Source: Aureococcus anophagefferens (lineage: Eukaryota; Sar; Pelagophyceae; Pelagomonadales; Pelagomonadaceae). From it: a stretch of DNA of 64,000 nt. Position numbers and translations under genes: made by a program. Below, in pieces: positions 4,293 to 58,823 of this stretch; position 1 is the first letter of the stretch, and each line of letters opens with the position of its first letter. The DNA lies in the NCBI RefSeq assembly GCF_000186865.1, contig NW_008705575.1, positions 536,577 through 600,576 of the forward strand, read 5' to 3'. Below the pieces are notes generated by a model. The model made no database searches, was not told where the DNA came from, and was given only the letters and a program-made list of their open reading frames with translations.

Positions 4293-6094
4293 ATGGCCAT
4301 GTCTTCGGGGCTGCCGCGGCGACGACGCCTGGGAGCTTCATCGTGCCATTCGGGGCTGCTCCTCCTTATGGCCATAACCTTCATGCCCAATGCGATGGCC
4401 GCAACCACGCCCGACGGCCTCTGCGCCGCGCTGCGCGCCGCGGACCTGCTCCGCCCGGGAACGACCATTGACCTCTGCGTCGCCGCCGCGGCCCGCCGAC
4501 GGCTCGACGAGGAGGCCATGGACGCCGTCGGGAGCCCCCGGGGCCTCCTGGACCTCGCGCTCACGGCGACGTGCATCATCTGCGCGGCGCTCGCCGCGGG
4601 CCTCACCATGGGCGTCGTGAGCCTCGACCCCCTGGACCTGCGCGTGAAGATGCGCACGGGTACCAAGAGCGAGCAGGCGTGCGCCGCGCGGCTCTTGCCG
4701 CTCGTCGACCGCCGGCCCCACCACCAGGTGCTCGTGACGCTCCTCCTCCTGAACTCCTGCGCCAACGAGGCGCTGCCGCTGTTCTTGGATAAACTCGTCC
4801 CGAGCTGGGCGGCCATCGTCATCTCCGTGACCGCCGTGCTCGTCTTCGGCGAGATCGCGCCGTCGGCGCTCTTCACGGGCCCCAACAAGCTCCAGATCGC
4901 GGCCGCCTTCGCGCCCCTCGTCCACTGCTTCCTCGTCGTGCTGGCGCCGCTCGCCTACCCCATGGCGCTCGCGCTCGACGCCGCGCTGCACGAGGAGGCC
5001 AAGGCGACGTCCCGCGCGGAGGTCCTGGCCCTGGTCGACGTCGAGCGCGAGCTCGCCAACGAGGACGGCCGCGCCGAGCCCTTCACGGAGGACGAGGCGG
5101 ACCTCGTCAAGGGCGCCATGAGCCTGTCGACGACGTCGGTCCGCGAGGTCATGGTGCCTCTGAAGCGCGTCTACGCCGTCGACGAGAGCGACGCGCTCGA
5201 CGCGGCGCTCCTGGAGAAGATCGACGACCAGGGCTTCTCGCGGGTGCCCGTCAAGGTCGGCGGCGCCATCCGCTCCTACGTGCTCGTGAAGGACAGGGCA
5301 GGAAAAGAGTGTGAAATTCCCAACTTCAAAGGCCCCTATCTCGGCCGTTTTCCACTCGTTTCGGCTGAGTTTTGGACGAGCGATCATTTCTCGGAACGGT
5401 CTCGAAGCATGGATGCTTTTTCCGGAACGCGCGCGCGCGGAACACTCATATTGAAGCGACGTTGAATCTCTCTCTTCCTGCCCAGGTGAAGGAGCTCGTG
5501 CCCCACGCGCTCCGCGCGGACGCGTCCGCGTCGTTACCCGTCGCGACGCTCCCGACGCACGCGCCCGTCTGGGTGTCGCCGGACCACAGCCTCTTCGATC
5601 TGCTGAACCAGTTCCAGACCGGCGCGACGCACATGGGCTTCGTCGCCGAGGACGCCGCGGGCCGGCGGGGCATCCTCGGCATCGTCACGCTCGAGGACAT
5701 CATCGAGGAGATCCTCACGGAGGAGATCTACGACGAGCACGACCGCGACAAGGCCGAGGACGTCATCGGCCGCTTCGTGCGCCGGGCCTTCCCCAAGGTC
5801 TTCGAGAACAAGGTCGCCGCGCCCGCGGAGCAGAGCCTCCTCGACGGGCGCGAGGACAGCGTCGGGTCCTACAAGCGCCGCGGCTTCGGCGAGCGCGCGC
5901 GCCGCGGCGAGCCCGGGCCCTACGGGCGGCGGCCCCGCGGCCTCTCCGGGCCGCCGGGGCTCCGGCGCCAGGGCTCGGGCGCGGTCGACCGCCGGCCGCC
6001 GCCGGGCCACCACCGGCACCCGCACGCGCGCGTCATGCAACGGCCCCAGCGCGACGCGTCCCTGCGCTCCATCCTCGGCGACGAGCGCGTCTAA
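4293..6094 (+). CDS. CNNM/CorC-type transporter (DUF21 plus CBS pair), interrupted by an introner
   Basis: Exons 4293-5285 and 5486-6094, phase 0, 533 residues. After a signal-like segment (HSGLLLLMAITFMPNAMA) comes the DUF21 membrane domain: LLDLALTATCIICAALAAGL, TMGVVSLDPLDL, HHQVLVTLLLLNSCANEALP, a helix at AIVISVTAVLVFGEIAPSAL, then two CBS motifs (STTSVREVMVPLKRVYAV and ILGIVTLEDIIEEIL). This is the CNNM/CorC/HCC architecture associated with Mg2+ transport. The first CBS motif is interrupted after SYVL by introner 1. Removing 5286-5485 joins SYVL to VKELVPHALRAD without loss. The C-terminal 90 residues are basic, Gly/Pro-rich and low complexity. The gene converges with the RING-like gene 10 bp downstream. 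Confidence 0.88.
5294..5485 (+). mobile_element. Introner element 1 (subfamily A, 192 bp), forming intron 5286-5485
   Basis: A 192-bp insert bounded by imperfect inverted repeats (CAGGGCAGGAAAAGAG at the left, CTCTCTTCCTGCCCAG at the right). It is flanked by perfect 8-bp direct repeats GTGAAGGA at 5286-5293 and 5486-5493. The left repeat begins with GT and serves as the splice donor. The element ends in a pyrimidine tract plus CAG, the acceptor. The intron is therefore exactly 200 bp and removal restores one target copy in frame. About 90% identical by eye to introners 2 and 3. Confidence 0.95.
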
Positions 6095-6104
6095 ACGTTA
6101 GTTC

Positions 6105-6887
6105 TTAGTCGCCCTCGGCGCCGCAGGCGGGCGCGCACGCGAAGGGCGTCGCCGCGGCGAGGACCGGCGTGGCCTTGGCGCTGATGGCGCCGGTCGTCGA
6201 CGACGCCAGGCGGAGGGGCGCCATGTAGGTGCGCCGCGCGTAGGCCCGCGCGTTGCGGCGCCGGTCGCCCTTTGCCGCCCCGACGTAGCCGACGCCCGCG
6301 GCGACGCCCGACAACGGGATCGCGACGGCTTCGGCCGCGACGGCGACGGCGCCCGTCGCGAGGACGGCCGCGGCGCCGGCGACGGCCACGGGCAGCGCCG
6401 CGCACGCCGCCGCGGCCGACGGATCGCAGCCGAGGACCGCGTGGCGATCGCTGTAGCGGCCGCCGCAGCGGAGGCACGCGACCGCGGAGCAGGCGACGCA
6501 CCTGGCCCGGCGCGACGACGCGCCGCGGCCGAAGCGCGAGCCCAGCGGCGCGCAGTAGCCGGCGCACGACGCGTCGGCGCAGGGGATCTCGCCCCGGAGC
6601 AGCGACGCGAACGCGTCGTTCCGGGGGACGCTCATCGGCGAGAAGCCGAGCTCGCGGAGCTCGGCGTTGCCCAGGCGGTGGCCGCAGCGGATTGGGCAAT
6701 AGACGTCTCCGTTCTCGTTCGCCATGAGCGCTCGGAGCGCGTAGTGCTTCATGTAGGGAGCAAGCGTTGCGCAACCGCACGTGCACCGCCAGACGCGCGC
6801 GTTCGCGGCGATGGGCTGCAGCGAGAGGGCGCAGACCTCGTCATCGAGCAGCTCCGCGTCGTCGGCGTTCGAGAGCAACGTGTTCAT
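6105..6887 (-). CDS. Cysteine-rich RING/IBR-like protein with a hydrophobic C-terminal half
   Basis: 260 residues. The N-terminal 150 residues carry paired cysteines and histidines: CALS, WRCTCGC, YCPIRCGH, CADASC, CAPLG, ARCVACSAVACLRCGGRYSD. The spacing recalls RING/IBR (TRIAD) ubiquitin-ligase modules, with the CxxC-x4-CxxC block resembling an IBR. Positions 160-210 are Ala/Val/Gly-rich and could form two membrane helices (AALPVAVAGAAAVLATGAVAV; IPLSGVAAGVGYVGA). If the reading is right it would be a membrane-anchored E3-like protein, but the ligand pattern is not a clean match and activity is unproven. Confidence 0.45.
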   Translation of the reverse strand: MNTLLSNADDAELLDDEVCALSLQPIAANARVWRCTCGCATLAPYMKHYALRALMANENGDVYCPIRCGHRLGNAELRELGFSPMSVPRNDAFASLLRGEIPCADASCAGYCAPLGSRFGRGASSRRARCVACSAVACLRCGGRYSDRHAVLGCDPSAAAACAALPVAVAGAAAVLATGAVAVAAEAVAIPLSGVAAGVGYVGAAKGDRRRNARAYARRTYMAPLRLASSTTGAISAKATPVLAAATPFACAPACGAEGD

Positions 6888-7065
6888 GGCGTCGGGCTGC
6901 TGCTTCGGGTTGGCGCATGCCCCGACTCGGCTGCCCGATCGATCGTGATGCGAACATTCTCCATGGAACCATGTGGTTCACCATCGCCTATGGGAAGATT
7001 CAGCGTCCACGGCGCCTCGCGGTTAGGGCTGCCCTTACTGGCGGCCGTGCGTCTCGCGCGGCGCC

Positions 7066-7563
7066 ATGCCCGCGCCTCCGGCGGCGCTCGTGCCGCCCCT
7101 GGCCGGGGTCGACGGCGGCTTCTTCGGCGCTAGGCCGCCGAGCGACCCGAGCCTCGTGCCGGCCTGCACGCCGCGGCGGCAGCTGAACAAGCTGCTCGCG
7201 AATGCCAAGGCCATGGACGCCCAGGCGGGGCGCCAGCTCAAGACGGTGCGCACGGCGCCCCCGCCGGCGCCGGGCAGCGTCGGCGAGCGCGAGCTCGCGC
7301 GCTGGGGGAAGAAGATCGACAAACAGTACCTCATCATCACGGCGCACTACGACTTTCGCGACAAGAAGCTGCGCTTCGAGGTCTTCAACACGCGCAAGGA
7401 GACGAGCCACTGCCTCGTCTGCCGCCACGCGGACGTGCTCAACCGCGGCGACGCGTCCGTCGTCGAGGTCGCCAAGGCCATCGCGCTCGACCTCGAGTTC
7501 GACGGCAGCGGCAAGCTCGTCTTCGGGCCCCACGTGCCCGCGTCCTGGGTCTCCCAGGACTGA
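7066..7563 (+). CDS. Hypothetical protein, 165 aa
   Basis: ATG at 7066, stop at 7563. The family is not recognised. The N-terminus is Pro/Ala-rich and the middle contains CTPRRQLNKLLANAKAMDAQ. The C-terminal half looks like a small mixed alpha/beta domain (KQYLIITAHYDFRDKKLRFE, VFNTRKETSHCLVC, LDLEFDGSGKLVFGPHVP). There is no signal peptide or membrane segment. Codon usage matches the strongly GC-biased neighbours, which supports it as a real gene. Confidence 0.55.
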   Translation: MPAPPAALVPPLAGVDGGFFGARPPSDPSLVPACTPRRQLNKLLANAKAMDAQAGRQLKTVRTAPPPAPGSVGERELARWGKKIDKQYLIITAHYDFRDKKLRFEVFNTRKETSHCLVCRHADVLNRGDASVVEVAKAIALDLEFDGSGKLVFGPHVPASWVSQD

Positions 7564-7639
7564 CCCCGTCCGCCGGTGCGCGTGTGGAACCCGCCCCGGA
7601 ATTTGCTCCTCGTAATCTCTCGTTTTTTTTGTGTGCATG

Positions 7640-8600
7640 TTATGGGAAGCGGCGCGCAGGCTCCCCGGCCTCGTCCTCGTCGCCGCCGCCGCCGCGGTCG
7701 TCGACGTCGACGACGATGGGCGACATGAACGTGGCCAGCAGCGCGTCGTCGGCGAAGGTGTCCGTCGTCGAGAAGACGAGGACGGCGCTCTTCGCGGCGA
7801 CGGCCGCGGCGACGGCGCGGATCTCCGCGATCTGCAATTCCGCGTCCTTGATCGAGATCTCCACGCGGCTGCCCACGGAGAAGCGCGGGTCGTCGGGCGT
7901 CTTGTCCGCCGTCGCCGCGTCGACGCCCTCGACGACGACGACCTCGTGGCCCGCGGCGAGCTGCGCGGCGACGGCCTCGTAGAGCGATTTGGCGCCGCGG
8001 CCCCGGCCGAGGAGCGGCGCCTTGGCCTTGGCCGCGCACGCGGTCAGCACGGCCGCGACGTCGGCCGGCGCGCCGACGACGCGCACGCTGCGCACGAAGG
8101 GCTTCACGGCGAGGCGGCAGACGCGGCGGAGCCCGTAGTCCTGCGCCGCCGTCAGCGCCGGCGCGTCGGATTTCGCGGGCTCCTTCGGCGGCGCGGGCGC
8201 GGGCAGGCACAGGATGCGCTGGAAGAAGCCCGGCGCTTCCGCGCCCGTCGCGTCCTCCCCTACTGTCGCCTCGAAGCGCGTGCGGAGCGCCCGCTCCCGC
8301 GCGAGCTGCTTTCGTAAAGCGGCGACCTCGGCCTCGAGGTCCGCGACGCGCCTCCTGTCGTCGCGGCCCTCGTCGTCGCGCGCGCCCTGCAGCCATCGCT
8401 GCCAGCGCGCGCGGCTCCGACGCGTGCTTGCTTCGTTCGTCCTCGAGCTGCTGGGCGTGCTGGCTTTGTTCGTCCGCGAGCTGCTGTTTGAGAGCTTTGG
8501 CCTCGGTCTCGGCCTTCTTCGCGAGCTCGCGCGACGCCGCCACCTCGAGTTGGAGGTCGTAGATCGTCGGGCCGTCGTGGTCCAGCTCGTCCTCGTTCAT
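7640..8600 (-). CDS. Coiled-coil protein of unknown function with an apparent one-base frame break
   Basis: The ATG at 8600 opens a frame reading MNEDELDHDGPTIYDLQLEV and a charged coiled coil (ASRELAKKAETEAKALKQQL). At about 8405-8420 the plausible frame shifts by one base and continues RWQRWLQGARDDEGRDD, RRVADLEAEVAALRKQLARE and a conserved-looking C-terminal domain (RILCLPAPAPPKEP, VKPFVRSVRVVGAPADVAAV, GHEVVVVEGVD, SAVLVFSTTDTFADDALLA) to the stop at 7640. The break lies in an alternating GC run, with no GT...AG pair nearby that would explain it. Either the assembly has an indel or the gene is damaged. Function unknown. Confidence 0.5.
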
Positions 8601-8835
8601 CGCGCGGGGGCTGCGTGCAGCTCACAGCTAGGCAGGGGCTGCCAGCATGCTGCCTCTCATCGGCACGGATTGCGAAGTCGACTGCAGCATCAGTCGTTGA
8701 TGCAGTTGGTTGACGCTCAATAAAAGCCTGCTCGCGCAATGAGCTTGGCGCCTACTCGTGACTAGCAGCGGCGCATCGCTTCACGCGCCGCGCCGCGCCG
8801 CGCATCGCTTCACGCGCGCCGCACCCGCCGCATCG

Positions 8836-11322
8836 ATGAGCTCCTCCGACGAGGACGAGGCCCGGCCGCGGCTCGGCCTCGGCGCGGCGAAGAAGCGCAA
8901 GGCCGACGCGTACCTGGGCGTCTTCGGCGACGACGACGACGAGGCGCCGCGCCGCGGCCTCGGCGGCAAGCGGCCGGCCAAGGGCGGCAACGACTCGAAG
9001 CCCATGGCCTTCGTGAGCGCCGCCGCGCCCGCGCCGCCGCCGCCGCCGCCGCCGGCGCCGCCGGCCGCGCCGGCGTCGAACGCGGACTTTCGCGCGCAGT
9101 TCCTCGCGGAGCCCGCCGCGCCGGCGCCGGCGCCGCCGCGGCCCGCGTTCGGCGGCCGCAAGGCGGCGCAGCCCGAGTGGATGAAGCACACCAAGGGCGT
9201 CGGCTTCAAGATGCTCGAGAAGATGGGCTTCACGGGCCGCCTCGGCAAGGAGGAGCAGGGCGTGAGTCGCCACGTGGAAGTCACGAAGCGGCCCGAGGGC
9301 ATGGGCCTGGGCTTCGCGGCGGCCCGGGGCTTCGTCGAGGAGGCCAAGCTCGGCGCGAACGTGCAGCTCCAGCGCGAGCTCGGCCACGCCGTGCCCGACG
9401 CGGCCGAGGAGCTCCTCGCCGAGGAGAAGGCCGACGAGCACCGCGCGAAGCGGCGGCGCCAGTTCCGCGACGCGGCGTCCATGGCGACGGCCGTCGACAA
9501 GCTCGACGCCGCCGTCGCGCTCAACCGGTCGAGCGAGGCCGCGCGGCGCGCGGCCGCGCTGACCGCGGCGCAGGACGGCGCCGCGGCCGTGCCGCCCGAG
9601 TCGCGTTTGGCCGCGCGGCTCCGCGAGGATCTCGACGCGCGGCTCAACGGCGAGGAGAGCTTCCTGCGCGACGCCGACGGTCGCATCGACGCCGAGCGGG
9701 ACCGGCGCGCGGGCCTCGACTTCGACGTGTCGACGGCGCGCGACGGCGCCGCGCGGCTGCGGCGGCGCGCGGACCGCCTCGCGGACTTCGACGCCGCGCT
9801 CGCGGCCGTCGAGGCCGCGGCGGGGAGCGGCGACGTCGCCGCGTTCAAGGCGGCGCTCGAGCGCGCGCGCGCGCGCTTCCCCGAGGAGTGGGCGCTCTGC
9901 GGCGTCGCGGCGGCGACGTACGACGCGGCCGCGCCGCTCGCGAGGGCGGCCTTCGCCGGCTGGCGGCCCCTCGAGGACCCGGGCCGCGCCGCCGAGGTCG
10001 TCGCGGCGCTGCGGCCCGAGGCGCTCTTCGACGCCTCCTACGACGTAGACGCGGCGGCGCCCGCGTGGCGGCTGCTGTTGGACCGCGTCGCGGGCGCGGC
10101 CGCGCGCGCGGCGCTCCAGCGGTCCTGGGCGCCGGGCGGCGAGCGAGACGGCGCGGCCCTGGCTTTGGTCGGGGCGCTCTTCCCGCGGGGCGGCGGCCGC
10201 GACGACGCGTTCGTGTCCGCGGTCTTGGCGCCGCGGCTGTTGAAGTTGCTCGAGGCGGAGATCGCGCGCGCGCGCCGCGGCGGGGCGCCCGCGGGCCGGC
10301 CCTGCGCGCCCTGCGTCGCGCCCTGGCTCGCGCACCTCGACGGCGACGACCGGTCCGCGGCGTCGGACGCGGCCGCGCGGCTCCTGCGGCTCGAGATGAG
10401 CCGCGCGGCGCGCGACGGCGGAGACGACGCCGCGGACGACGGCTTCGCCGACGACGACGCGCGGGGGCGGGCGGGCCTCCGCGCCGTCGCGCGCGCGGCG
10501 GCCAAGTGGAAGCCCCACGTCGACGCGCGCGACTGGGCGAAGATCGCGTCGTCGAACCTCGCGCGCGCGGTGGCTGACGCCGCGCGCGGCGGGTGGGTCG
10601 TGGCGCCGCCGGGGCAGATGGAGGCGCAGGACTGGCGGCCCGTCGACGCGCTGCGGGGCCTGGGGGCGTCCCTCGGCGCGCGCGACGGCGACCTGCGGGC
10701 CGTCGTGCTCGGGGAGATCGCGCCCCGGTGGGTCTCCGCGCTCCGAAACTACCTCGTCTCGGACGACGCGGCGCCGGACCCGCTGGACGTCGCGGACTTT
10801 TACGTCCTCTGGCGGGACCGCTTCCTGGGCAACTCCATCACGCAGCTCGAGGACGACGACGACGCGCCGCCGCCGCCGTCGGAGGGCGCGGCCGCGGCGT
10901 GCCGCGAGCTGCTCCGCTGCGGCCTGCAGATGGTCGAGGTGTACCTCGCCGACGCCAAGGCCCTCCGGCGCCTGCCGGCGCCGCCCCTCGCGGCGCCGTC
11001 GTCCTTCGAGCGCGTCCAGCTCGCCGCGGCGGCCGCCGCGGCGCCCGCGGCCGCGCCCGCGCCCGCGCCCGCGGCGCCGGGCTGGCGCGCGGCCGTCGAC
11101 GGCGCGGGCTTCGTCGTCTTCGCGGACGTCGTCGCGCGCTTCGCCGCGGAGCACGACGTCGTCTACCGGCCGAAGGTCGGCCGCTCCCACGACGGCAAGC
11201 AGCTCTACGCGTTCGGCAAGGCGACGATGTACATGGACCGCAGCGTCACCTTCGTCAAGAAGCCCGACACGGGCCTCTTCAAGCCCGTGCCCCTCGAGGA
11301 GCTCCTCGCGTTGGCGTCCTAA
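8836..11322 (+). CDS. TFIP11: TFIP11/Ntr1-like G-patch splicing factor
   Basis: 828 residues from ATG 8836 (MSSSDEDEARPRLGLG). The acidic, Pro-rich N-terminus is followed by a G-patch (KGVGFKMLEKMGFTGRLGKE, MGLGFA), a long helical GCFC/TIP-type region (WRPLEDPGRAAEVV, WLAHLDGDDRSAAS, VDALRGLGASLGARD, FYVLWRDRFLGNSITQL) and the characteristic C-terminus (FADVVARFAAEHDVVYRPK, GRSHDGKQLYAFGKATMYMD). In yeast and humans this protein recruits and activates the DEAH helicase Prp43/DHX15 for spliceosome disassembly and intron-lariat release. The gene is intronless here. The 5' leader carries a repeated CGCATCGCTTCACGCGC. Confidence 0.88.
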   Translation: MSSSDEDEARPRLGLGAAKKRKADAYLGVFGDDDDEAPRRGLGGKRPAKGGNDSKPMAFVSAAAPAPPPPPPPAPPAAPASNADFRAQFLAEPAAPAPAPPRPAFGGRKAAQPEWMKHTKGVGFKMLEKMGFTGRLGKEEQGVSRHVEVTKRPEGMGLGFAAARGFVEEAKLGANVQLQRELGHAVPDAAEELLAEEKADEHRAKRRRQFRDAASMATAVDKLDAAVALNRSSEAARRAAALTAAQDGAAAVPPESRLAARLREDLDARLNGEESFLRDADGRIDAERDRRAGLDFDVSTARDGAARLRRRADRLADFDAALAAVEAAAGSGDVAAFKAALERARARFPEEWALCGVAAATYDAAAPLARAAFAGWRPLEDPGRAAEVVAALRPEALFDASYDVDAAAPAWRLLLDRVAGAAARAALQRSWAPGGERDGAALALVGALFPRGGGRDDAFVSAVLAPRLLKLLEAEIARARRGGAPAGRPCAPCVAPWLAHLDGDDRSAASDAAARLLRLEMSRAARDGGDDAADDGFADDDARGRAGLRAVARAAAKWKPHVDARDWAKIASSNLARAVADAARGGWVVAPPGQMEAQDWRPVDALRGLGASLGARDGDLRAVVLGEIAPRWVSALRNYLVSDDAAPDPLDVADFYVLWRDRFLGNSITQLEDDDDAPPPPSEGAAAACRELLRCGLQMVEVYLADAKALRRLPAPPLAAPSSFERVQLAAAAAAAPAAAPAPAPAAPGWRAAVDGAGFVVFADVVARFAAEHDVVYRPKVGRSHDGKQLYAFGKATMYMDRSVTFVKKPDTGLFKPVPLEELLALAS

Positions 11323-11415
11323 GTTTGACGGCTTAGTTATGCGTGGGTGTGCAGATGCCCGAGGGCCTCGGTCACTTGGCCTCAGGCTAGCCACTACGGA
11401 CCCCTCAGAGGGAGC

Positions 11416-13065: not shown

Positions 13066-13136
13066 CGCACAGGAGAAAAGTTCGCGGCATGTCGCGCTGG
13101 GTCGGGCTGCCCGAGACCCACTGGGATTGTCGAGCG

Positions 13137-14673: not shown

Positions 14674-14818
14674 TGCGAAGGCCTGGCGCCCGGGGAATCG
14701 CTGGCAAGGGGGCTGGAGGCCATGGAAACTTCAATGTTGATGTGCACTTTGCCAGTTCGATCGCGATGGTCCACCTCTCGCGGCTGCAGCAGCGCTGCAA
14801 TGGCCGCTGCTCAACGCC

Positions 14819-14899: not shown

Positions 14900-14911
14900 G
14901 GCGCTCGCACG

Positions 14912-15729: not shown

Positions 15730-15740
15730 AGGTGCCAGTG

Positions 15741-19087: not shown

Positions 19088-20878
19088 AGCAATTGTTCGC
19101 GGCGACGATCGCGTGGATGTCGCCCGTCATGTGGAGATTGAACTCCTCCATGGGGATGACCTGGCTGTAGCCGCCGCCCGCCGCGCCGCCCTTGATGCCG
19201 AACGTCGGGCCCTGGCTCGGCTGGCGGATCGTCGTGACGACGCGCTTGCCCAAATTTTTGCCGAGCGCCTGGCAGAGGCCGATCGTCGTCGTCGACTTGC
19301 CCTCGCCGAGGGGCGTCGGGTTGATGCCGCAGACGACGACGAGGGACCCCTCGGGCGCGCCCGCGAGGCGCGCCGCGACCCTGCCCGCGTCGACCTTGGC
19401 CTTGTGCCGGCCCCAGGGGATGAGCTCGTCGCGCGCGACGCCCGCCGCGGCCGCGACGTACTCGAGGGGCAGGGGCGTGCAGGCCTGGGAGATGGCGATG
19501 TCCCGGGGCACGGGCGTGAGGCGCGCCGTGCCCGCCTCGAAGGGCGGCGCGGGGCTCGACGGGCGGCTCGCGCGGAACGCGTCGTCGCGGCTGAGGTCGT
19601 TCATCGACGTCACGCGCGCGAGCGCCGCCTCGACGACGGGCCCGCGCGCGAGGGTGCGCTCGGCGAGGCGCAGCGTATTTTGGAGCAGCATGGCGATGGT
19701 CATGGGCCCGACGCCGCCGGGCACGGGCGTGATCTTCGAGCAGACCTTTTTGGCCGCTTCGTAGTCGACGTCGCCGACGAGGCGGTAGCCGCGCTTCGCC
19801 GTCGCGTCGTCCACCGCATTAATCCCGACGTCAATCACGACGCAGCCGGGCTTGAGCCAGGCGCCCTTGATGAACTCGGGCTTGCCGATGGCCGCGACGA
19901 CGACGTCCGCGCCGCGGACGACGGCCGCGATGTCGCGCGTGCGCGAGTGGCAGACCGTCACGGTCGCGTCCATCTTCTGCAGGAGCGCCGCCACGGGCAT
20001 GCCGACGATGTTCGACCGGCCGACGACGACGGCGGCCTTGCCGCGGCACTCGACGCCGGACCGCGTCAGCAGCTCCGCGCACCCCGCGGGCGTGCACGCG
20101 ACCGCCGACGGATCGTCGCCGCCGCGGAGGCACAGGTTGCCCACGTTCAGCGCCGCGAAGCCATCGGCGTCCTTGTCCACGGAGATGCGCTTCAGCACGG
20201 CGGCCTCGTTGACGTGCGACGGCAGCGGCAGCTGCACGAGGATGCCGTGGATCTGCGGGTCCGCGTTCAAACGCATGACGGCCTCGGAGATCTCCTTCTC
20301 CGACGCGTCGGCGGGCAGGTTGACGTCGACGCTGTGGAAGCCCACCTCGGCGGCGGCCTTCTTCTTCATGCGCACGTACGTCGCGCTGTCCTTGCGCTCG
20401 CCGACCTGGGCAGGACAAGAGTGCGAAATTCCCAACTTCAAAGGCTCCGATCTCGGCCAATTTCCACTCGTTTCGGCTGATTTTTGGACGAGCGATCATC
20501 TCTCGGAACGGTCTCGAAGCGTGGATGCTTCTTCTGGAACGCGCGCGCGCGGAACACCCACGTTGAAGCGACGTTGAATCACTCTTGTCCTGCCCTGTCG
20601 CCCACGAGCACGACGGCGAGGCCCGGCCGCGCGCCGCCGCGCGCCGCGGCCATGGCGTCGACGCTCGCCTTGATCTCTCCGCGGATCTGCGCGGCGATGG
20701 CCTTGCCGTCGATGACCTCGGCGTCCGTGGTCGTCGTGGTAGAGCTCGCGGCGGCGGCGGTGCGAGGCGACGCGGCGGCGGCGGCGGCGGTGGGCTTGTC
20801 GGCCTGGAGGTAGGTCGCCAGGGCGTAGGCCGCGGCGGCGCCGGCGACGGCGCCGACGACGACGTCCTTGTTGCCCAT
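19088..20878 (-). CDS. MTHFD1: C1-tetrahydrofolate synthase (MTHFD1-like), one introner, C-terminus lost in gap
   Basis: Exons 20606-20878 and 19088-20405 (minus), phase 0. After a signal-anchor-like N-terminus ([19 protein letters not shown]) the FolD part begins: GLAVVL joined to [20 protein letters not shown] with the catalytic Lys in YVRMK, then [40 protein letters not shown] and [15 protein letters not shown]. The formate-THF ligase domain follows: [37 protein letters not shown] (ATP loop), [20 protein letters not shown] and [17 protein letters not shown], ending at the gap. The enzyme interconverts 10-formyl-, methenyl- and methylene-THF. The N-terminal hydrophobic stretch suggests organelle or membrane association rather than plain cytosolic location. 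Confidence 0.95.
20406..20597 (+). mobile_element. Introner element 2 (subfamily A, 192 bp), antisense in host gene; intron 20406-20605
   Basis: Core oriented as in introner 1 on the + strand, but the host gene is on the minus strand, so it is spliced in the opposite orientation. Read along the host, the left end is CAGGGCAGGACAAGAG and the right end CTCTTGTCCTGCCCAG. The duplication is GTGGGCGA (20605-20598, donor) versus GTCGGCGA (20405-20398, exon), 7 of 8 identical. The intron is 200 bp, GT-AG, phase 0, and removal joins AVVL to VGERKDS, exactly as expected for the FolD domain. Confidence 0.95.
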
Positions 20879-41297: not shown

Positions 41298-41298
41298 C

Positions 41299-46419: not shown

Positions 46420-46434
46420 AAAAAAGCAAAAAAA
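46420..46434 (-). terminator. Pol III T-run terminator of the 5S gene
   Basis: Immediately 3' of the 5S RNA on the minus strand are two runs of T separated by GC, the standard Pol III stop signal. Confidence 0.85.
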
Positions 46435-46552
46435 ACGAGCAACACTCGGGATTCCAACGTGGTCACCCACCGTAGTACTAACCAAGCTCGATCCGGCTTA
46501 ACTTCGCTGAGCTGACGGGAAGCGGTGCTCTCCGAATGATATGGTCGCTCGT
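46435..46552 (-). rRNA. 5S ribosomal RNA
   Basis: 118 nt on the minus strand. The ends pair as helix I (ACGAGCGAC with GTTGCTCGT). Internal control sequences are recognisable: GAAGTTAAGCCGGATCGAGC (box A region) and TGGTTAGTACTACGGTGGGT (box C region). The transcript runs into a T-rich terminator (eight T, GC, seven T). A TTTATAG sequence lies 24-30 nt upstream of the start (46576-46582). This is a single copy dispersed between protein genes; no tandem array is visible in the window. Confidence 0.96.
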
Positions 46553-47646: not shown

Positions 47647-48375
47647 CACGTGCGTGCGCACGGCGTCGTAGAGGACGCGCCGGTCGACGGCCGCCGGGTT
47701 CGTGCCCACTAAGACGAGGTTCGAGAAGCAGGTGAAGAAGAGCGTGATCGCGAAGTGGACGACCGTCGGGTGCCACCAGCTCATGCCCGCGGCCCCGCAG
47801 AAGTTCGGCTCCACGGCGAGGCCCGCCACGGCCAGCGCGACCGCGCAGGCCCAGAGCTTCTTCAGCAGGTAGAGCTCCTCGGCGCGCCGCGGCGACTCGC
47901 GGCGCGCGACGATCCACGAGATGACGAGCGGGAAGAGCCCCGTGAGCGCGTTGTTCACCGCGAGCTGGTACGCGCCGACCTCCGCGCCCGCGCGGCAGTC
48001 CGCCGCCGCCGACGCCGCGACGGCCGCGGCGACGCCGGGGCCGAGGAACGGCGCCGGCGCGAACATGTGCACGCTGTTCGCGAGGAGCAGCGACGCGAAG
48101 CCCTCGATGTCGACGCACGGCGGGCCCATGGCGTGGTGGTAGAGGTTGTGCAGGAACAAAAGCCAGAGCGGCGCGCAGAACGCCAGGGCCGCGCGGCGCT
48201 CCGCGTGCGACACCCACGCGGCCGTCGCCGCCGCGGGGCAGAGCAGGATGACGACGCTGCTGACGGTGGCGAGCGGGTTGCGCAGTGTGTGCGCTCCCGC
48301 GGCCCAGCTGTGGTCCTCGCAGCTCAGGAAGCGCGAGTAGCCCAGCGTGGGGTCGCTGCCGTCGTGGAAGGCCAT
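47641..48375 (-). CDS. Multi-pass membrane protein, possibly CREST/ceramidase-like
   Basis: 244 residues from ATG 48375. About six hydrophobic helices. Polar motifs: FLSCEDHSWAAGAHTLRNPL followed by ATVSSVVILLC, FLHNLYHHAMGPP, VEPNFCGAAGMSWWHP with VVHFAITLFFTCFSN. The C-E...N...S-S and late WWH-x-x-x-x-H pattern recalls alkaline ceramidases of the CREST superfamily, but this is weak. Its stop overlaps the stop of the dioxygenase gene by 6 bp, tail to tail. Confidence 0.45.
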   Translation of the reverse strand: MAFHDGSDPTLGYSRFLSCEDHSWAAGAHTLRNPLATVSSVVILLCPAAATAAWVSHAERRAALAFCAPLWLLFLHNLYHHAMGPPCVDIEGFASLLLANSVHMFAPAPFLGPGVAAAVAASAAADCRAGAEVGAYQLAVNNALTGLFPLVISWIVARRESPRRAEELYLLKKLWACAVALAVAGLAVEPNFCGAAGMSWWHPTVVHFAITLFFTCFSNLVLVGTNPAAVDRRVLYDAVRTHVS

Positions 48376-48642
48376 CGTTCGCGATCGTTGGCTGACCGAC
48401 TGCAAGGACCTTGTCCGCTGACTTGCTGCGACGATTGCTGGCGCGCGACGCGACGAATTGCTCTGCTGACCGACTGCTAGCTCTTCGACGCCTCTTCGAC
48501 GCCGATTGCAGGCTGAATTGGCCTCGTTTCTCGAGCGTTTGCCGACGCCGACGGACGATTGATGGTGCCACGACGGCGGCGCCTTGTGGCAAGAGGTTCA
48601 AGAAAACACGCCTCTTCTTCAACTACAATCAGGCGAAGGCCG

Positions 48643-50028: not shown

Positions 50029-50206
50029 TCGGCGGCTCCGCTTCGTCTCCGGGGAGGCGTCGTTACGGCGTAGTTAGGACGTCGTAAGTGACGCCGTCGC
50101 AGCCGCAGACTTCAACGTCGCATCACAGGTCCATCGTGCAGGGGAAACAACGATGGGCAGCGCCGCCGAGATGGAAGCGGCGCCCTGACCGCAGCCCGCA
50201 CGAGCC

Positions 50207-53200
50207 ATGGCTCCCGGGTGGAAGCCGCAGGAGCCGAAGCCCGCGACGCCGCCGGCCGCGCGGCCGAGCAGCGCGGGCGTGCTCAAGGTGACGCTCGTCG
50301 AGGGCAAGGAGCTCCTCGCCGTCGACAAGGGCGGCACGTCCGACCCCTTCGCGGTGCTCCAGCTCCTGGACCAGTACGACAACCCCCACGGCAAGCCCCA
50401 GAAGTCGAAAACCATCAAGAAGACGCTGGTTCCGCAGTGGAAGCAGAGCTTCCAGTTCCCGCTGCCGGCGACCGTCGTCGGCTTCAAGCTCCGCGTCGTC
50501 GTCCAGGACCAGGACCGCGGCCTCTTCGGCGCCAAGCCCGCGACGAACCTGGGCACGGCCTACCTCTCCATGGCCATGCTCGCGCCGGGCACGGTGCAGG
50601 ACAACTGGTTCAAGCTCGAGCGCGTCGGCGACATGCAGCGCGTCTCCGGCGCCGTCCGCGTCGCCTGGGCCCGCTACGCCGTCGGCGACGACCGCGGCGC
50701 CAAGAAGGGGCGCAAGGCGTCCGTGGACCACCTCGTCGACGTCGACGGCAAGGAGACGCCGGCCGAGGAGGCCATCGAGGAGGCCGTCGACGACGACGAC
50801 CTCAGCGAGGCCGGCGTCGCGAAGCGCGAGGCGGAGAACGCGGCCGCCGGGTTGCCGCCCGGCGTCGACATCGCGGCGCTGGACAACCAGCCGGACAAGC
50901 CGCCCAACGAGCTCCACGTCGTCCTCATGCGCGCCTCGGGGCTGAAGGTCATGGACAAGTCGCTCTTCGGCCGCGGGTCGTCGGACCCCTACGTGACCCT
51001 GAGCTGCGACGGCGAGACGTCCAAGTCGACGATCAAGCGGAAGGAACTGAACCCCGTCTGGCTCGAGACCTTCAAGTTCCCCGCCTTCGACAGCAAGACG
51101 TCCCTGAAGCTGACGGTCTTCGACCACGACGACCTGGGCAAGGACGACTTCATGGGCCGCGTGAACATCAGGGCAGCAAAAGAGAGCGACATTCCCGACT
51201 TCAAAGGCTCCGATCTCGGCCGTTTTCCACTCGTTTCGGCTGAATTTTGGACGAGCGATCATCTCTCGGAACGGTCTCGAAGCGTGGATGATTATTCCGG
51301 AACGCGCGCGCGCGGAACACTCACGTTGAAGCGACGTTGAATCTCTCTTTTGCTGCCCAGGTCCACATCAAGATGCGCGACCTCAAGGACAAGGCGCTCA
51401 AGCGGATGACGCTCAAACTGGAAGGCGAGTCGGGCCGCGCGGACGAGGACCGGGGCGAGATCGAGTTCTTCGCCGCCTGGCGCACGAACGGGAAATTGAT
51501 GGTGGACCTGCCGACGTCCGTGCTCCAGCTGACGAAGCAGCCCGAGCGCCACGCGGACGAGGCGCCGAACGAGCTCATCGTCGTCGTCATCCGGGCCACG
51601 CGGCTGCTCGCCATGGACACGAAGATGTTCGGCAACAAGCCGGGCACGTCGGACCCCTACGTCAAGCTCGAGTGCGACGGCTCCGTCTTCACGACGGCCA
51701 CGAAGCAAAAGACGACGAAACCGCTCTGGCTCGAGGTCGTCCGCATCCCCGTGGACCCGTACTCGCACGCGTTCCTGGAATGCTCCGTCTTCGACAAGGA
51801 CCTGGTCGGCGCCGACGACTTCATGGGCAAGATGAAGGTGCCCATGGACAAGTTCCTCGATCGGTGCGGGCGGCGGCGCTGGTACACGCTCAGCGGCGCC
51901 GACGGCAAGCGCGACAAGGACCGGGGCCGCCTCGAGATCTACACGATCTGGCGCTACACGTCGACGCTCAAGCTCGAGGTGCCCACGGAGCTCTTCGTGG
52001 ACGGCTACCCCTTCATCGACGAGCGCTTCCCGCCGACGTGCCTCCAGGTCTTCGTGGCGCGGGGCAAGGGCCTCCAGGCCGTCGACGTGTCGCTCACCGG
52101 ACAGGCCACCTCCTCGGACCCCTACGTCCGCGTGTCCTGCGAGGGCCAGGTCGCGCAGACGTCCGTCAAGGAGAAGACGCTCGAGCCGCGCTGGAAGGAG
52201 ATCCTGACGCTGGGCCCCGTCGAGGACGAGACGTCGGATCTGGTGCTCACGGTCTTCGACCACGACGTCGCGTCCGCGGACGACAAGATGGGCGAGATCC
52301 GGCTGCCGCTGGCGCTGCTGGCGAACAAGGCGCCCGTGCGGCGGTGGCTGCCCCTGGGCGGGTCCATCGCGCCGGCGGAGTACGAGCGCGTCCTCGATTT
52401 GGACACGGAGCGGCCGCCGACGCCGCTGCCGCCGCCGGCCGTCGAGGGGGACGACCGCTCCATCTCGAGCCTCGAGACCTTCGGGTCGGCGCCCGGCGAC
52501 GGCGCGGGCCCGCCGCCCGTCGGCACGGTCCTGCCGCCGACCCTGGGGCCGCCCGGCGGCGCGAATCCGGCGCCCGCGCCCGCGCCCTTCGACGTCGCCG
52601 AGGAGAGCAGCGACGACGACGACCGCGGCCAGTCGACGCGGCGCGGCGCCATGCTCAAGTCGAAGAAGAAGCGCCGCGGCGGCGTCGTGGCCCTGGGCGC
52701 GGACCGCGACGCGCCGGCCGCCCAGCACCACAAGCCCGCGCACCACGACGAGCACGAGCGGCTGAACCTCGACGGCACGCGCCACCAGTCGTCCAAGGAC
52801 CTCGCGGCGCAGCGGCCCAAGGTGCGCCACGACCACTCGCCCCTGGATTACGTCGAGTTCACGCACCCGGACAAGCGCATCGGCAACATCGACGTCTGGG
52901 TCGCGTGGCGCCACGACCCGGAGTTCATGTACAAGCTGCCCCCCGGGTCCGACGCGGACCCCTTCCCGGGGCTGGAGCCCAACGAGCTCACGATCACCGT
53001 CATCCGCGCGAAGCGGCTGCTCGCCGTGGACACGTCGCTGCTCGGGGGCACGAGCTCGTCGGACCCGATGGTCGCGATCCGCCTCGGCGCCGGCCCGGAG
53101 CAGCGGACGCAGTCCGTGAAGAAGAATCTGTACCCGGCCTGGCAGGAGACCTTCTACCTCAAGGACGACAAGTCGGGGGACGACGTCGACGTCGTCGTCT

Positions 53201-56200
53201 ACGACGTCGACGCCAAGGTCGTCTCCGACGAGACGCGCGAGTTCATGGGCCAGTGCAAGGTCAACCTCGCCAAGCACCGCGACTTCCGCGGCCGCTGCGT
53301 GCGCCACTGGTACCCGCTGGTCGGCGAGGACGGCAAAGCGGACCTGGACCGGGGCACGCTCGAGCTCTTCACGGCGTTTCGCCACAACCCGGACCTCGCC
53401 GTCGTCGACGTGCCCGAGGAGCACGCGGTGGACCCCCACATCGGCACGGAGGACCCCAACGAGGTCGGCATCGTGCTCATCCGCGCGAAGAATCTCAAGG
53501 ACGGCGGCGGCCGCGGGACGATTTTGGGCGGGTCCGCGAACGCGAAGCGCGTGAACCCCTACGTGAAGTCGTACGTCGGCACGTGGGAGCCCCAGAGGTC
53601 GGACGTCAAGGAGGGCACGGCGTCGCCCGTCTGGGTCGACACCTACGCCTTCGAGTGCGACGACTGGAACGCCGACATCTGCTTCGAGGTCTACGACAAG
53701 AACGCGATCGCGAACCGGCCCGACGAGCTCCTCGGCACGCTCACGATCCCCGTTAAGTCGCTGAGCAGCCGGAAGCCCCTGCGCAAGTGGTGCCGCCTCG
53801 CCGACAAGAGCGGCAAGCCGTCGAAGACCTGCGGCGATTTGGACGTGTGCCTCCACTGGCGCCACAGCCCCAAGGTGAAGGGCTTCCCCTACGACTTCGA
53901 GCTCGACCCGCCCGCGCCGGAGCACCTCCAGCTCAACCAGCTCCAGATCCACGTCGTCCGCGCGCGGGGGCTCCAGTCCGCGGAGCACCACGGCGGCGGC
54001 TTCCTCCAGCAGGCGTCGAGCTCGCGGAGCCTGTCGAAGGGCGGGTCCGCGCGGAACTTTGGGAGCGCGGCGTCGGCGAAGCCCGCGGGCTCGTCGGAGC
54101 CGCAGGTCAAGCTCCAGATCGGGTCCCTGGCGCCCCAGCGCACGAAGAAGGTGGAGCGGACGCTGAACCCGGACTTCGACGAGCGCGTCGTCTTCGACGA
54201 CGTCTACGACCCGACGCTGTCCGTCGTCTGCACCGTCGAGGACGGCGCGAAGAGCACGACGCAGCCCGAGTTCCACGGCAAGGTCACGGTGCCGATCCGC
54301 ATCCTGGCCCACCGCCTGCCGCTCCGCAAGTGGTTCCTCCTGGAGAACAAGAAGGGCCGCGCGGACGCGGCGCTCGGGCGCATGGAGCTCGTCTTCCGCT
54401 GGTGCTACAACCGCTTCCTGGACGTGAACTTGCCGGAGGAGGGCGCCATCGACGACCAGGTCCACGAGTCGCCGAACGAGCTCTTCGTGGTGCTGATCCG
54501 CGCGCGGAACCTCCACGTCGAGGACCGGAAGTCGCGCGGCGATTCCTGCGACCCCTACGCGAAGCTGACGTGCTGCGGCAAGATGAAGAAGTCGTCCGTG
54601 CGCAAGAAGACGCTGAACCCGCGGTGGATCGAGCGCATGGCCTGGGACGCCGACGACATCTCCGACGAGCTCGTCGTGGAGATCCACGACACGGAGGTCA
54701 TGGGCGGCCACGACTTCATGGGCCAGTGCCGCATCTCCATGGAGGACCTGAAGAAGCGCCAGTCCCTGCGGCGCTGGTTCGCGCTCACGGACGGCCACGA
54801 CCTCGCGGACAAGGACCGGGGGGACCTGGAGCTGCTCCTCCACTGGCGCTACAACCCGGAGATGCGCGGCCGCACGTTCCCGGAGGACGACCCCGCGGAC
54901 CCCTACCCGGACAAGACGTGCAACGCGCTGAAGATCGTGCTCGTGCGCGCGAAGAAGCTCAAGATGCTCGACAAGTACCTCTTCCACCGCGGCGGGTCCA
55001 CGGACCCCGTCTGCACGATCAAGTTCCACGACGAGCGCCGCGTGTCGTCCACCAAGAAGCGCGACCTGAACCCGGAGTGGGGCGAGAGGTTCACGTTCGA
55101 CGACGTCGACAAGCTCGAGGAGGACCACTTCGAGGTGTTGATCGAGGACGTCGAGGCCGGCGGCCAGCGCGACGTCGTCGGCCGCGTGAAGATCTACACG
55201 TCGTCCTTCCAGGACCGGAAGCCCCACCGGCGCTGGTACTGGCTCGAGGGGGAGCACGACGCGCAGCCGCGCACGTCCGGCAAGGTCGAGCTGATCACGC
55301 GGTGGATCCACGACCCCGCGCTGGTGCTCGACGTCGAGGACGAGACGCTCGTCGACGAGTTCATCGGCGTGGAGGAGCCCAACGAGGTGACCGTGTGCGT
55401 CGTGCGGTGCCGGAAGCTCCAGCGGACGTCGCGGACGCTGGCGTTGAAGGACTCGTCGTGCCCCTTCGTCAAGGTGCGGACCAAGTTCGAGGAGAAGAAG
55501 ACGCGGACGCTGCGCGCGACGGTGCACCCGCAGTACATGAAGCGCTTCGCCTTCGAGATGCGCGCGGGCGACGATGATCTGCTCGTCGAGACGTGGGACG
55601 GCGGCGAGCGCGACGGCGACGACCCGCTCTTCATGGGCCGCGCGCGGATCTGTGTGGAAATCAAATCTTCAACCCGACTTCAATGTGAGCGTAATCGAAC
55701 GTTTTGACACGAGCACTTCCGCCGTGCTTCGAGAACTCGACGAGAGCGATCGATTCGTCCAAAAATCAGCCGAATCGATTTCGATGTGACCGAGCTAGAG
55801 AATTCTGAAGTTTGGCCCCGACGTCCCGGCTCACTGGTTGATTTCCACACAGGCGCGGATCCACCTCCGCGCGCTCGACGACCGCGTCCCCCACCGCATG
55901 TGGCTGACGCTCGGCGACGCCAAGGGCAAGCACGACGCGGCCAAGGGCCGGGGCCAGGTCGAGGTCGTCGCGTGGCACCACTACAACCCGCGGCACCACT
56001 GCGACGTGCCCGGCGACGCGCGCGACGACGCCGTGCCCGACGGGCCCTGCAACCAGATCTGCGTGTCCGTGCTCCGCGCCTGGAACCTGACGGCGCTGGA
56101 CCACAAGTCGGCGAGCAGCGGCTTCGCGGGCTCGTCGGACCCGTTCTGCGTCGTCCACTGCAACGGCCAGGACAAGACGACGGCGACGATCGACGCGGAC

Positions 56201-58823
56201 GTGCACCCCGTCTGGCTCGCGACGTTCAAGTTCCTGGCGTCGCCGAAGAACGACGTGCGCTTCGACGTCTGGGACTACGACTCCCTGCGGAGCAACAAGT
56301 TCATCGGCACCGCGGCGTTCCCCCTCGGCGACGCGCCGTTCGAGAAGGGCCGGCCGCGGCGGCTCTGGCTCAAGCTCACGAACCGCGACGGCTTCAAGGA
56401 CAAGCGGCGGGGCATGGTCGAGATCTTCGTGCACTGGCACACGTCCATGAAGCTCTACAAGGAGGAGGAGATCGACGACGTCGCGCACCTCACCGAGGAC
56501 GGGTCCGTCGAGTACGCGGGCGGCTACCGGCCCAAGAAGAAGCCGAAGAGGCCCACGGGCCACGCGCCGGAGCAGCTCGTCGTCGCCGTGCTGAAGGCCT
56601 CCGGGCTGAAGGAGCTGGCGCTCGACACCGCGGTCCGCGTGACAATAGACGTCGACGACGTATCCAAGTCCACCGTGCCCAAGGTCGTCGCGCGCGACGG
56701 CGCCTTCTTCCAGGAGCGGTTCCACTTCGACGTCGAGGCCTGGGAGGGGCCGGGCTACTGGGACGGGCCCGACGTCACGCTGTCGCTCCACACCGCGCGC
56801 GACGCGTCTGCGGCGCCCGACTGGGCCATGGCCCTCGGCTCGAAGACCTACAAGGTGGCCATCTTCACGCTGAAGGATCGGCGCACGATCACCTTCGACA
56901 ACGGCCTCGCCGTCGACGTCTTCTTCCACTGGCGCCACCTCCAGGACCCGCAGGTCTTCGCGCGGCCGCGGAAGGACGGCGGCGACCCGCGGGCGGCGTC
57001 CGGCGGGGCGCCGCGCGCGCCGCCCGCGGCCGCGCCGGCGCCCGCGAAGCCGTCCTTGGCCCCGGGCATGTCCTGGACGGACACGATGCGGCTCGGCGCC
57101 GGCGACACGTCGACGGAGGCGACGTCGACGGACGTGAACACGCTCTCGTTCCTCGTCGACGACCGGTCGATGGCGGACACGGTCGAGGACAAGTCGCTCG
57201 AGGGGGGCCGGTCCTTCCTCGTCGACGACGGCTCCGTGGACGACGCGGCGTCGAGCTCCTTCGAGGAGAGCAAGGACTCCGCCGCGCCCGCGCCCGCGGC
57301 CGCGCGGCGGCGCCGGTCGTCGCGCCACGGCCGGGGCCAGCTCGTGCCGGCGTCGCGCGCGGCGCACGGCATGTACGACGTCGCCACGGACGCCTACGAC
57401 TTCGACGTCGAGGCCGTCGAGGTCGAGGTCGTCGTCCACGGCGCGCGCGGCGTGCCGTCGACGCGGTTCCTCTCGCTCGACGCGAACGTCAACGTCGCGG
57501 CCGTCGACGCCAGGGCAGCAAAAGGGTGATTCAACGTCGCTTCAACGTGAGTGTTCCGCGCGCGCGCGTTCTGGGAAAAGCATCCACGCTTCGAGACCGT
57601 TCCAAGAGATGATCGCTCGTCCCAAAAATTAGCCGAAACGAGTGGAAAGCGACCGAGATAGGAGCCTCCAAGGTTGGGAATTTCGCACCCTTTTCCTGCC
57701 CAGGTCGACGCGGCGCGCAAGGAGGACCAGTACGCGGCCTACTCCACGGGCTCGGCCACGGGGACCTTCGAGACGACGCCGGGCATGGGCGCCAAGTTCT
57801 GCGCCGCGGCCTGGGACTCGCGGCGGACGTTCGTCGTCGCGCCGTCGACGGTGCTGAACTGTGTGGAAATCAACCACTGGTTTGGGACGTCCCGACCAAA
57901 CTTTGAAATTCTCTAGCTCGGCCAAATCGAAGTCGATTCGGCTGACTTTTGGATGAATTGATCGCTCTCGTCAAGTTCTCGAAGCACTGCCGAAGAGTCC
58001 GGTCCAAACCGTTCGATTACGCGCATATTGAAGTCGGATTGAAGATTTGATTTCCACTCAGGTGCTCAATCTGACGCTCGCGGGGCGCGGCTCGCGCGCG
58101 GTGCGCCGGTACGTGCAGCAGCTGCCGTTGCAGGTGCTGGGCTTCGCGTCGCTCTGGATCGCGAGCCCCCACGGCGAGCCGCGGCGCGACCGCGACTGGC
58201 TGCCGCTCTGCGGCGGCGCGCTGTCGGGCGACGACTGGACGCAGGACCGCGGCGAGCTCGACGTGGAAATCCGCGTACTCGGCCCCGCGGACCCCGCGCG
58301 CCTCGCTGTGAAGCGGCCCTGGAGCCGCCACGTGCCGCCGACGCCGCCCTTCGCCATCGACGCGCCGGCGCTGCGGGAGCTGCCGCCGGATCTGAAGAAG
58401 GGCGCGCTCGTGCCGTTGGTCTTTCCGACGACGTTCCGCGCGCTCGGCCGGACGTCGACGCCCGCGGCGAACTACCGGCGGGCGCTGAGCCTCCTGCCGC
58501 TCCACGGCGGCGACGCGCGGGACGACGCGACGAAAAAGCGGCGGCTCATCGAGCAGCACTTCATCCGCGCCGCGGGGCACAACGTCGCGAAGCGGCTCAT
58601 CCGCGGCGGCGCGGGCCGCGAGAGCCAGCTCCCGCCGCCGGGCAAGCGCCGCTTCGACGGCTCGGGCTTCGTCTACCCGGCGGACACGCCGGACCCGCGG
58701 CGGCCGCCCGCGACGTACCCGGACACGCTCGCGTCGCTCTGCCGCACGGCCGCGGGCATCCGCACGCGGGACTTCTACGTCACGGGGGACCCGACGCTCC
58801 TGCCCCCTAATGTGCTTTTGTGA
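50207..58823 (+). CDS. Giant multi-C2-domain protein (about 13 C2 domains), five exons, four introner introns
   Basis: Exons 50207-51160, 51361-55641, 55853-57502, 57704-57850 and 58062-58823. Every exon length is a multiple of three and every intron is phase 0; 2597 residues. C2 domains start at GVLKVTLVEGKELL, NELHVVLMRASGLK, NELIVVVIRATRLL, CLQVFVARGKGLQ, NELTITVIRAKRLL, NEVGIVLIRAKNLK, NQLQIHVVRARGLQ, NELFVVLIRARNLH, NALKIVLVRAKKLK, NEVTVCVVRCRKLQ, NQICVSVLRAWNLT, EQLVVAVLKASGLK and VEVEVVVHGARGVP. Many keep Ca2+-loop Asp residues (SDPYV...FDHDD); some are degenerate (VNPYVK, SCPFVK). No membrane helix or enzymatic domain was seen. Probably a Ca2+/phospholipid-dependent scaffold, like ferlin or MCTP arrays but without their anchors. 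The last exon's PF/PL-rich end is unlike C2. Confidence 0.85.
51169..51360 (+). mobile_element. Introner element 3 (subfamily A, 192 bp); intron 51161-51360
   Basis: Ends CAGGGCAGCAAAAGAGAG and CTCTCTTTTGCTGCCCAG form a near-perfect 18-bp inverted repeat. Flanking duplication GTGAACAT (51161-51168, donor) versus GTCCACAT (51361-51368, exon), 6 of 8. The intron is 200 bp, GT-AG, phase 0. Removal joins DDFMGR to VHIKMRDLKDK inside the second C2 domain. Confidence 0.95.
55650..55852 (-). mobile_element. Introner element 4 (subfamily B, 203 bp); GC-AG intron 55642-55852
   Basis: Perfect 15-bp inverted repeats: CTGTGTGGAAATCAA at the left, TTGATTTCCACACAG at the right. Perfect duplication GCGCGGAT at 55642-55649 and 55853-55860. 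The host copy begins GC, so the intron is GC-AG, 211 bp, phase 0. Removal joins PLFMGR to ARIHLRALDD in the tenth C2 domain. The core is reverse-complementary to introner 6. A GT donor 10 bp inside (GTGTGG) would break the frame. Confidence 0.93.
57511..57703 (-). mobile_element. Introner element 5 (subfamily A, 193 bp); intron 57503-57703
   Basis: Ends CAGGGCAGCAAAAGGGTG and CACCCTTTTCCTGCCCAG. Perfect duplication GTCGACGC at 57503-57510 and 57704-57711. The core is inverted relative to introners 1 and 3. The intron is 201 bp, GT-AG, phase 0, joining NVAAVDA directly across to VDAARKED with the duplicated VDA counted once. Confidence 0.95.
57859..58061 (+). mobile_element. Introner element 6 (subfamily B, 203 bp); intron 57851-58061
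   Basis: Ends CTGTGTGGAAATCAA and TTGATTTCCACTCAG (one mismatch). Duplication GTGCTGAA (57851-57858, donor) versus GTGCTCAA (58062-58069, exon), 7 of 8. The intron is 211 bp, GT-AG, phase 0. It is separated from introner 5 by a 147-bp exon. Confidence 0.95.

What the first reader, a model, noticed from the sequence alone, without database searches (positions are those of the whole stretch)
5286..58069. Six introner elements: transposon-like units that are themselves spliceosomal introns
Six inserts (5294-5485, 20406-20597, 51169-51360, 55650-55852, 57511-57703, 57859-58061) each have terminal inverted repeats, 8-bp flanking duplications (three perfect, three with 1-2 mismatches) and near-constant length (192-193 or 203 bp). 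Each is removed as an in-frame intron that restores exactly one target copy. Introner elements with these features are known from Micromonas and from the pelagophyte Aureococcus. This window shows the mechanism in one view, in three unrelated genes.
Basis: partly seen in the sequence, partly recalled or inferred. Interest (0 to 1): 0.92.

Follow-up and report, generated by a model that had tools for sequence, protein, structure and literature searches.

The report
Jumping genes that became introns

Summary
All six inserts are copies of two repeat families (192-193 and 203 bp) with inverted ends and 8-bp direct repeats, 3 perfect and 3 with 1-2 mismatches. Each intron is the left target copy (starting GT or GC) plus the element (ending CAG); removing it restores frame in three genes. 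The spliced FolD protein equals an Aureococcus anophagefferens gene model, 100% over 343 aa, so this is the published introner system of Huff et al. 2016 (recalled, paper not held; described in passages). It is ordinary for this genome: 1,101 family-1 copies with intact ends and 314 of family 2. Possible additions for family 1: 1,062 of those 1,101 have GY at both target copies; the inverted repeat is mismatched at position 2 in a fixed sense, with only 7 copies having both ends CTG and 0 both CAG; in predicted folds this leaves the acceptor AG unpaired; the interior switches orientation relative to the ends. Limited searches found no mobilising transposase.

The parts
5286..5485 (+). introner intron, family 1 (interior orientation A); GTGAAGGA target copy + element 5294-5485; in a CNNM/CBS-domain transporter-like gene
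   Evidence: P0001, 99% identical, reads through the junction without the intron
20406..20605 (-). introner intron, family 1 (orientation B); GTGGGCGA target copy + element 20406-20597; in a FolD/formate-THF ligase gene
   Evidence: P0121 100% over 343 aa through the junction
51161..51360 (+). introner intron, family 1 (orientation A); element 51169-51360; in a multi-C2-domain gene, phase 0
55642..55852 (+). introner intron, family 2; element 55650-55852; would be a GC-AG intron; phase 0
57503..57703 (+). introner intron, family 1 (orientation B, interior reversed relative to 51169); element 57511-57703; phase 0
57851..58061 (+). introner intron, family 2; element 57859-58061; phase 0
57704..57850 (+). 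147-bp exon between two introners
   Evidence: coordinates; listed as 149 because the alignment there is trimmed by 2
50207..58823 (+). multi-C2-domain gene, five exons, open for 2,597 codons once the four introners are removed

Best explanation
These are non-autonomous cut-and-paste DNA transposons (MITE-like) of Aureococcus anophagefferens that act as introns: introner elements. Shown here: inverted ends, an 8-bp target duplication at each site, two high-copy families, 5' splice site (G-T or G-C) in the duplicated target, 3' splice site CAG at the element end, and frame restoration when one target copy plus the element is removed. The inverted repeat read outward (C-Y-CTTTT-S-CTGCCCAG) is at once the transposon end and a pyrimidine-rich acceptor, which can explain why either interior orientation serves as intron. 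Inferred: the spliceosome removes them, a trans-acting transposase moved them, and selection removed copies that landed in genes on the wrong strand or without G-Y. The transposase superfamily is unknown; 8-bp duplications and CAGGG-like ends fit hAT (recalled).
For: Six of six window copies with target repeats and in-frame removal. FolD protein identical across the junction. Of 86 family-1 copies in fetched loci (six more, with both ends CTG, set aside), 73 have a perfect target repeat, 85 have GY in the sense target copy, 78 lie in sense in apparently coding DNA with an open joined frame, 8 are unclear, 0 antisense. At 3,754 random positions in the twenty 10-kb loci: 884 coding on the locus's + strand, 1,173 on the other, 1,697 unclear, GY 20%. 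Genome-wide 1,062 of 1,101 intact-ended copies have GY at both target copies. The published descriptions in the passages I read fit.
Against: No RNA evidence could be obtained. No autonomous element was found, but the search was limited: hAT dimerisation domain 4 hits just over the family cut-off; KDZ 0 hits, with a control that rang nowhere; an end-pattern search outside the usual interior gave 56 places (control 5), of which I read 6, and only about 1.4-1.5 kb inward each, too short to exclude a long element. Three of six window target repeats are imperfect. One of 86 copies starts GA (L073), and 39 of 1,101 lack GY at one or both target copies. One of 12 full-length family-2 copies (L035) shows no target repeat as cut. 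Long open frames are common in this DNA, so frame restoration alone is weak evidence.
Confidence: 0.96

Rival explanations
1. The introns spread as RNA by reverse splicing into other transcripts, followed by reverse transcription and recombination.
For: 78 of 86 copies lie in apparently coding DNA, those 78 in sense, and 85 of 86 carry GY at the donor position, as an RNA route would give.
Against: The first 8 intron bases differ from copy to copy and equal the downstream exon at the same site (73 of 86 perfect); a reverse-spliced intron would carry its parent's 5' end. Conserved inverted ends are not expected.
Confidence: 0.02
2. Insertion is polar: the transposase, or insertion coupled to transcription, places the acceptor end next to G-Y, so copies are born as ready introns and selection does less of the sorting.
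For: 1,062 of 1,101 intact-ended copies have GY at both target copies. Uniform insertion plus purging would leave most survivors outside coding DNA (my arithmetic; 1,697 of 3,754 random positions are unclear), yet 78 of 86 are called coding. The 8 copies in unclear DNA also all have GY.
Against: The unclear sites may be untranslated exons or poorly scored genes. Absence of antisense copies in genes shows strong selection anyway. The mirrored end of the target (RC at positions 7-8) is enriched only to 31 of 86 against 20% expected, p 0.0007, which points to a weak symmetric preference. Gene bias of introners is already in print.
Confidence: 0.2
3. Ordinary old introns that look alike because of gene duplication.
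For: Four of the six lie in one gene made of C2 repeats.
Against: The same elements lie in three unrelated genes in the window and at more than 1,000 sites genome-wide; in the copies examined the flanks differ and most sites have their own target repeat (34 of 45 family-1 copies perfect).
Confidence: 0.01

Closest known systems
Introner elements of Aureococcus anophagefferens (Huff, Zilberman and Roy 2016, Nature 538:533; recalled, paper not held)
   Same: Species; inverted ends and direct repeats of constant length (passage in PMC7789003); characteristic length near 210 bp (passage in PMC9481584); splice-site co-option, insertion in both orientations and preference for sites between nucleosomes (passage in PMC10228655).
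   Different: Nothing in the finding itself. The fixed A/A mismatch at position 2 of the inverted repeat, its effect on the folded acceptor and the interior switches were not in the passages I read; whether Huff et al. report them I could not check.
Introners with target duplications and 3' splice site in the element, e.g. Symbiodinium microadriaticum (Gozashti et al. 2022, PMC9860276, passages read)
   Different: 4-bp duplication; I did not compare the sequences.
Family 4 of Aureococcus sp. TARA_AOS_82_MAG_00129 (same paper)
   Same: Genus and 8-bp target duplication.
   Different: Carries both splice sites and adds 12 bp to the message; about 77 bp long by its printed coordinates.
hAT superfamily MITEs (recalled)
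   Same: 8-bp target duplication, ends close to CAGGG.
   Different: No matching transposase found; the acceptor-bearing end reads CTGGG; family 2 begins CTGTG.

Membership tests
Introner elements (DNA-transposon type) | Many highly similar introns in unrelated genes of one genome | tested here: met
Introner elements (DNA-transposon type) | Terminal inverted repeats | tested here: met
Introner elements (DNA-transposon type) | Target site duplication (8 bp in Aureococcus, recalled) | tested here: met
   73 of 86 family-1 copies perfect; 7 of 12 family-2 copies perfect; 6 of 6 in the window with 0-2 mismatches
Introner elements (DNA-transposon type) | One splice site in the element, the other co-opted from the duplicated target | tested here: met
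Introner elements (DNA-transposon type) | Spliced out of RNA without changing the message | not testable with these tools
   frame and protein identity only
hAT transposons | 8-bp target duplication | tested here: met
hAT transposons | Matching hAT transposase in the genome with the same ends | tested here: inconclusive
   four PF05699 hits just over the cut-off; no copy of either family in those four 10-kb loci
hAT transposons | Target preference nTnnnnAn (recalled) | tested here: inconclusive
   position 2 is T or C in nearly all copies, as splicing demands; A at position 7 in only 13 of 92 copies

The most novel reading that the evidence does not exclude
Family 1 is a polarised introner: one base mismatch in otherwise matching ends (A opposite A at position 2, in a fixed relation to the sense strand) supplies the acceptor AG at one end and keeps it out of the hairpin formed by the inverted ends. 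The polarity is independent of the interior, which flips relative to the ends from time to time, perhaps by recombination between the inverted ends. Copies may also be placed with the acceptor end beside G-Y by the insertion reaction itself.
Probability: 0.25. Interest if true: 0.55.

Novelty: already known. Interest (0 to 1): 0.3.

Why it matters
Introners are, in the literature I saw, the best supported source of new introns on a genomic scale. This window is a clear example but adds no new kind. If the extra regularities hold, they would explain how a transposon end becomes a usable acceptor by a single base and would make the question 'does selection or the insertion reaction set intron polarity' testable by counting GY and strand in fresh insertions.

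Tried and rejected
Autonomous partner: PF05699 gave four hits just over its cut-off. Two of them sit in a 99% identical 5.4-kb duplication at whose ends I found no inverted repeat; no copy of either family lies in the four 10-kb loci. PF18758 gave nothing, and its control rang nowhere, so this is not evidence of absence. End pattern outside the usual interior: 56 places (control 5), mostly mutated copies as judged from the 22 matched letters only; six odd ones were read, about 1.4-1.5 kb inward each: one 78-bp internally deleted copy (L085), one shortened copy (L088), one decayed copy (L089), three without a partner end in the stretch read (L084, L086, L087). I did not look for transposase genes in these stretches.

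Viral carriers: two pattern scans of IMG/VR; the family-1 end had 0 matches, the single family-2 match looks like chance by its surroundings. The tool warns that records close to the window's genome may be left out.

Generic scan of the window for any element with 8-bp repeats and inverted ends: 569 pairs, swamped by GC-rich repeats; the reversed-sequence control is equal by symmetry, so it tests nothing, and the output was cut. Dropped.

Nucleosome spacing: 18 distances under 1 kb between neighbouring introners give a best period of 163 bp, p = 0.03 against uniform, with the best period in 130-220 allowed for in the null. Suggestive only. One search listed 19 rows; one was the same pair seen twice, and I corrected that pair from 149 to 147.

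Tree: the first tree with 45 copies and the larger one with 86 are poorly resolved (7 of 83 inner branches well supported in the larger, bootstrap not settled); 7 orientation changes, at least 2 forced by well supported branches.

Full report
What is there. The six inserts are present at the stated coordinates. Family 1 (192-193 bp: 5294, 20406, 51169, 57511) and family 2 (203 bp: 55650, 57859) share only a short weak stretch (61 nt at 72%); 57511 has its interior reversed relative to the other family-1 copies, and the two family-2 copies lie in opposite orientations. Each is flanked by an 8-bp direct repeat: perfect at 5294, 55650 and 57511, one mismatch at 20406 and 57859, two at 51169. Six of six at 6 or more of 8 matches has a chance of about 1e-12.

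Gene anatomy. The intron is the upstream target copy plus the element, 200, 201 or 211 bp. Its 5' splice site is the GT (five) or GC (one, 55642) that begins the target copy; its 3' splice site is the CAG that ends the element. With four introns removed, 50207-58823 codes for one open protein of 2,597 aa, all four junctions in phase 0; the three exon stretches scanned hold C2 domains. The CNNM/CBS-like gene around 5286 and the FolD gene around 20406 (minus strand) are likewise restored. Retention of any of the six meets a stop inside the intron. Long open frames are common in this 71% GC DNA, so conserved motifs matter more: the spliced FolD junction reads [26 protein letters not shown] and aligns without a gap to the two best solved FolD relatives printed.

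Which organism. The spliced FolD query matches AURANDRAFT_29188 of Aureococcus anophagefferens at 100% over 343 aa, through the junction. Two other proteins named A. anophagefferens match at 69% (P0124, which lacks stretches of the query but also reads through the junction) and 51% (P0126, not opened); I take these as faulty models or paralogues. The CNNM-like query matches a protein from an ENA source at 99% through the junction (P0001; whether that source is DNA or RNA I do not know); the one A. anophagefferens name that I saw in the 120 rows listed is only 49% identical and is probably a paralogue. I take the window as A. anophagefferens; the strain is not known. AURANDRAFT_29188 is a gene model, so it is not RNA proof.

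Genome-wide picture. The whole genome (49 Mb, 86 contigs) holds 1,720 hits of the 28-base family-1 end at up to 3 mismatches, control 0; 1,101 copies matching the intact-end pattern in the CAG...CAG sense; and 314 intact-ended family-2 copies (a self-complementary pattern, so its 314 forward and 314 reverse are the same places). Of the 1,101, 1,062 have GY at the donor position and again after the element. In loci that I fetched, full-length copies numbered 92 for family 1 and 12 for family 2 (alignments under 85% of length, ends off by more than 6 bases, copies within 20 bases of a locus end and duplicates were dropped). The loci were picked by good matches on a few contigs, so well preserved copies are over-represented. 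Six of the 92 came from the seven loci fetched because both ends read CTG; these have no strand by the end rule and were set aside. The other 86 are counted: 73 perfect target repeats, 85 GY (40 GT, 45 GC) and one GA, 78 sense-coding, 8 unclear, none antisense, 50 with interior orientation A and 36 with B. Of the 12 family-2 copies 7 have perfect repeats, 3 one mismatch, 1 two, and 1 none that match. The coding call rests on codon usage learned from two window genes; at 3,754 random positions it coding on the two strands and 1,697 unclear, with GY at 20%. If insertion were uniform and only harmful copies were purged, most survivors should lie outside coding DNA (my arithmetic); they do not. 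Insertion bias to genes, known for introners, is therefore needed besides selection.

The end mismatch. In family 1 the two ends are inverted repeats except at position 2. Read in the sense of the gene, copies begin CAGGGCAG and end CTGCCCAG, whichever way the interior lies. Copies with both ends reading CTG outward: 7; with both reading CAG: 0 (intact ends and 160-185 bases between only). The acceptor A is explained by splicing; the A at the other end is not. In predicted RNA folds the mismatch leaves the last A and G unpaired (mean pairing 0.00 and 0.03 in 79 introns; 7 more with G or C there are alike), whereas four natural both-CTG copies have them paired (0.99 and 0.94) and 12 family-2 introns mostly paired (0.80 and 0.76). 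Only four of the seven both-CTG copies were counted, because the others did not pass the length or donor filter. Family 2 shows that an open AG is not essential, so the mismatch may be inheritance from the source copies rather than selection.

Interior switches. On a tree built without the terminal bases the orientation label changes 7 times (6-8 in bootstraps; 27.7 on average in shuffles), with at least 2 changes forced by starred branches; one copy (L028, 4320) with orientation A sits in a supported clade with 13 B copies. Because both position-2 bases must change together and intermediates are rare, inversion of the interior between the ends is the simplest reading. This is inference.

What is known. 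Huff et al. 2016 described, as I recall its abstract, exactly such elements in this species; I could not open the paper. The passages I read agree: Aureococcus introners with direct repeats and inverted ends of constant length (PMC7789003), a characteristic length near 210 bp (PMC9481584), insertion in both orientations and between nucleosomes (PMC10228655), and a survey that includes an Aureococcus sp. family (PMC9860276). Introner-like introns are also reported in mirusviruses (PMC12768974, passages). For the mismatch and the switches I ran no paper search of their own; the introner searches listed and the passages read show neither. I therefore rate the finding as already known, with a modest open remainder.

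Verdict. Observation confirmed, interpretation supported, novelty low. The transposase remains unidentified here.

Noticed in passing
window 51149-51168 and 55630-55649: A family-1 and a family-2 introner sit at the same place in two different C2 repeats of one gene, both directly after TTCATGGGCCGC (FMGR), phase 0: parallel insertions at homologous sites.
   Followed up: partly
window 57704-57850: The exon between two introners is exactly 147 bp, the length of nucleosome core DNA (recalled), as expected if insertions fall in linkers.
   Followed up: partly
G000 family-1 copies: 45 of 86 introner introns would start with GC instead of GT, a very high share of GC-AG introns.
   Followed up: partly
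L085 1375-1452, minus strand: A 78-bp internally deleted family-1 copy still has both ends and a near-perfect target repeat (GCGAGAAA/GCGAGAAG).
   Followed up: no
L017 606-6033 and L018 660-6088: A 5.4-kb, 99% identical duplication on two contigs holds a frame with a hAT dimerisation domain (PF05699 just over cut-off).
   Followed up: partly
window 46434-46552, minus strand: 5S ribosomal RNA gene (Rfam RF00001, 102 bits).
   Followed up: no
L073 211: The only copy of the 86 whose target starts GA (GAGCGGCT on both sides); either a rare GA-AG intron or one spliced elsewhere or not at all.
   Followed up: no
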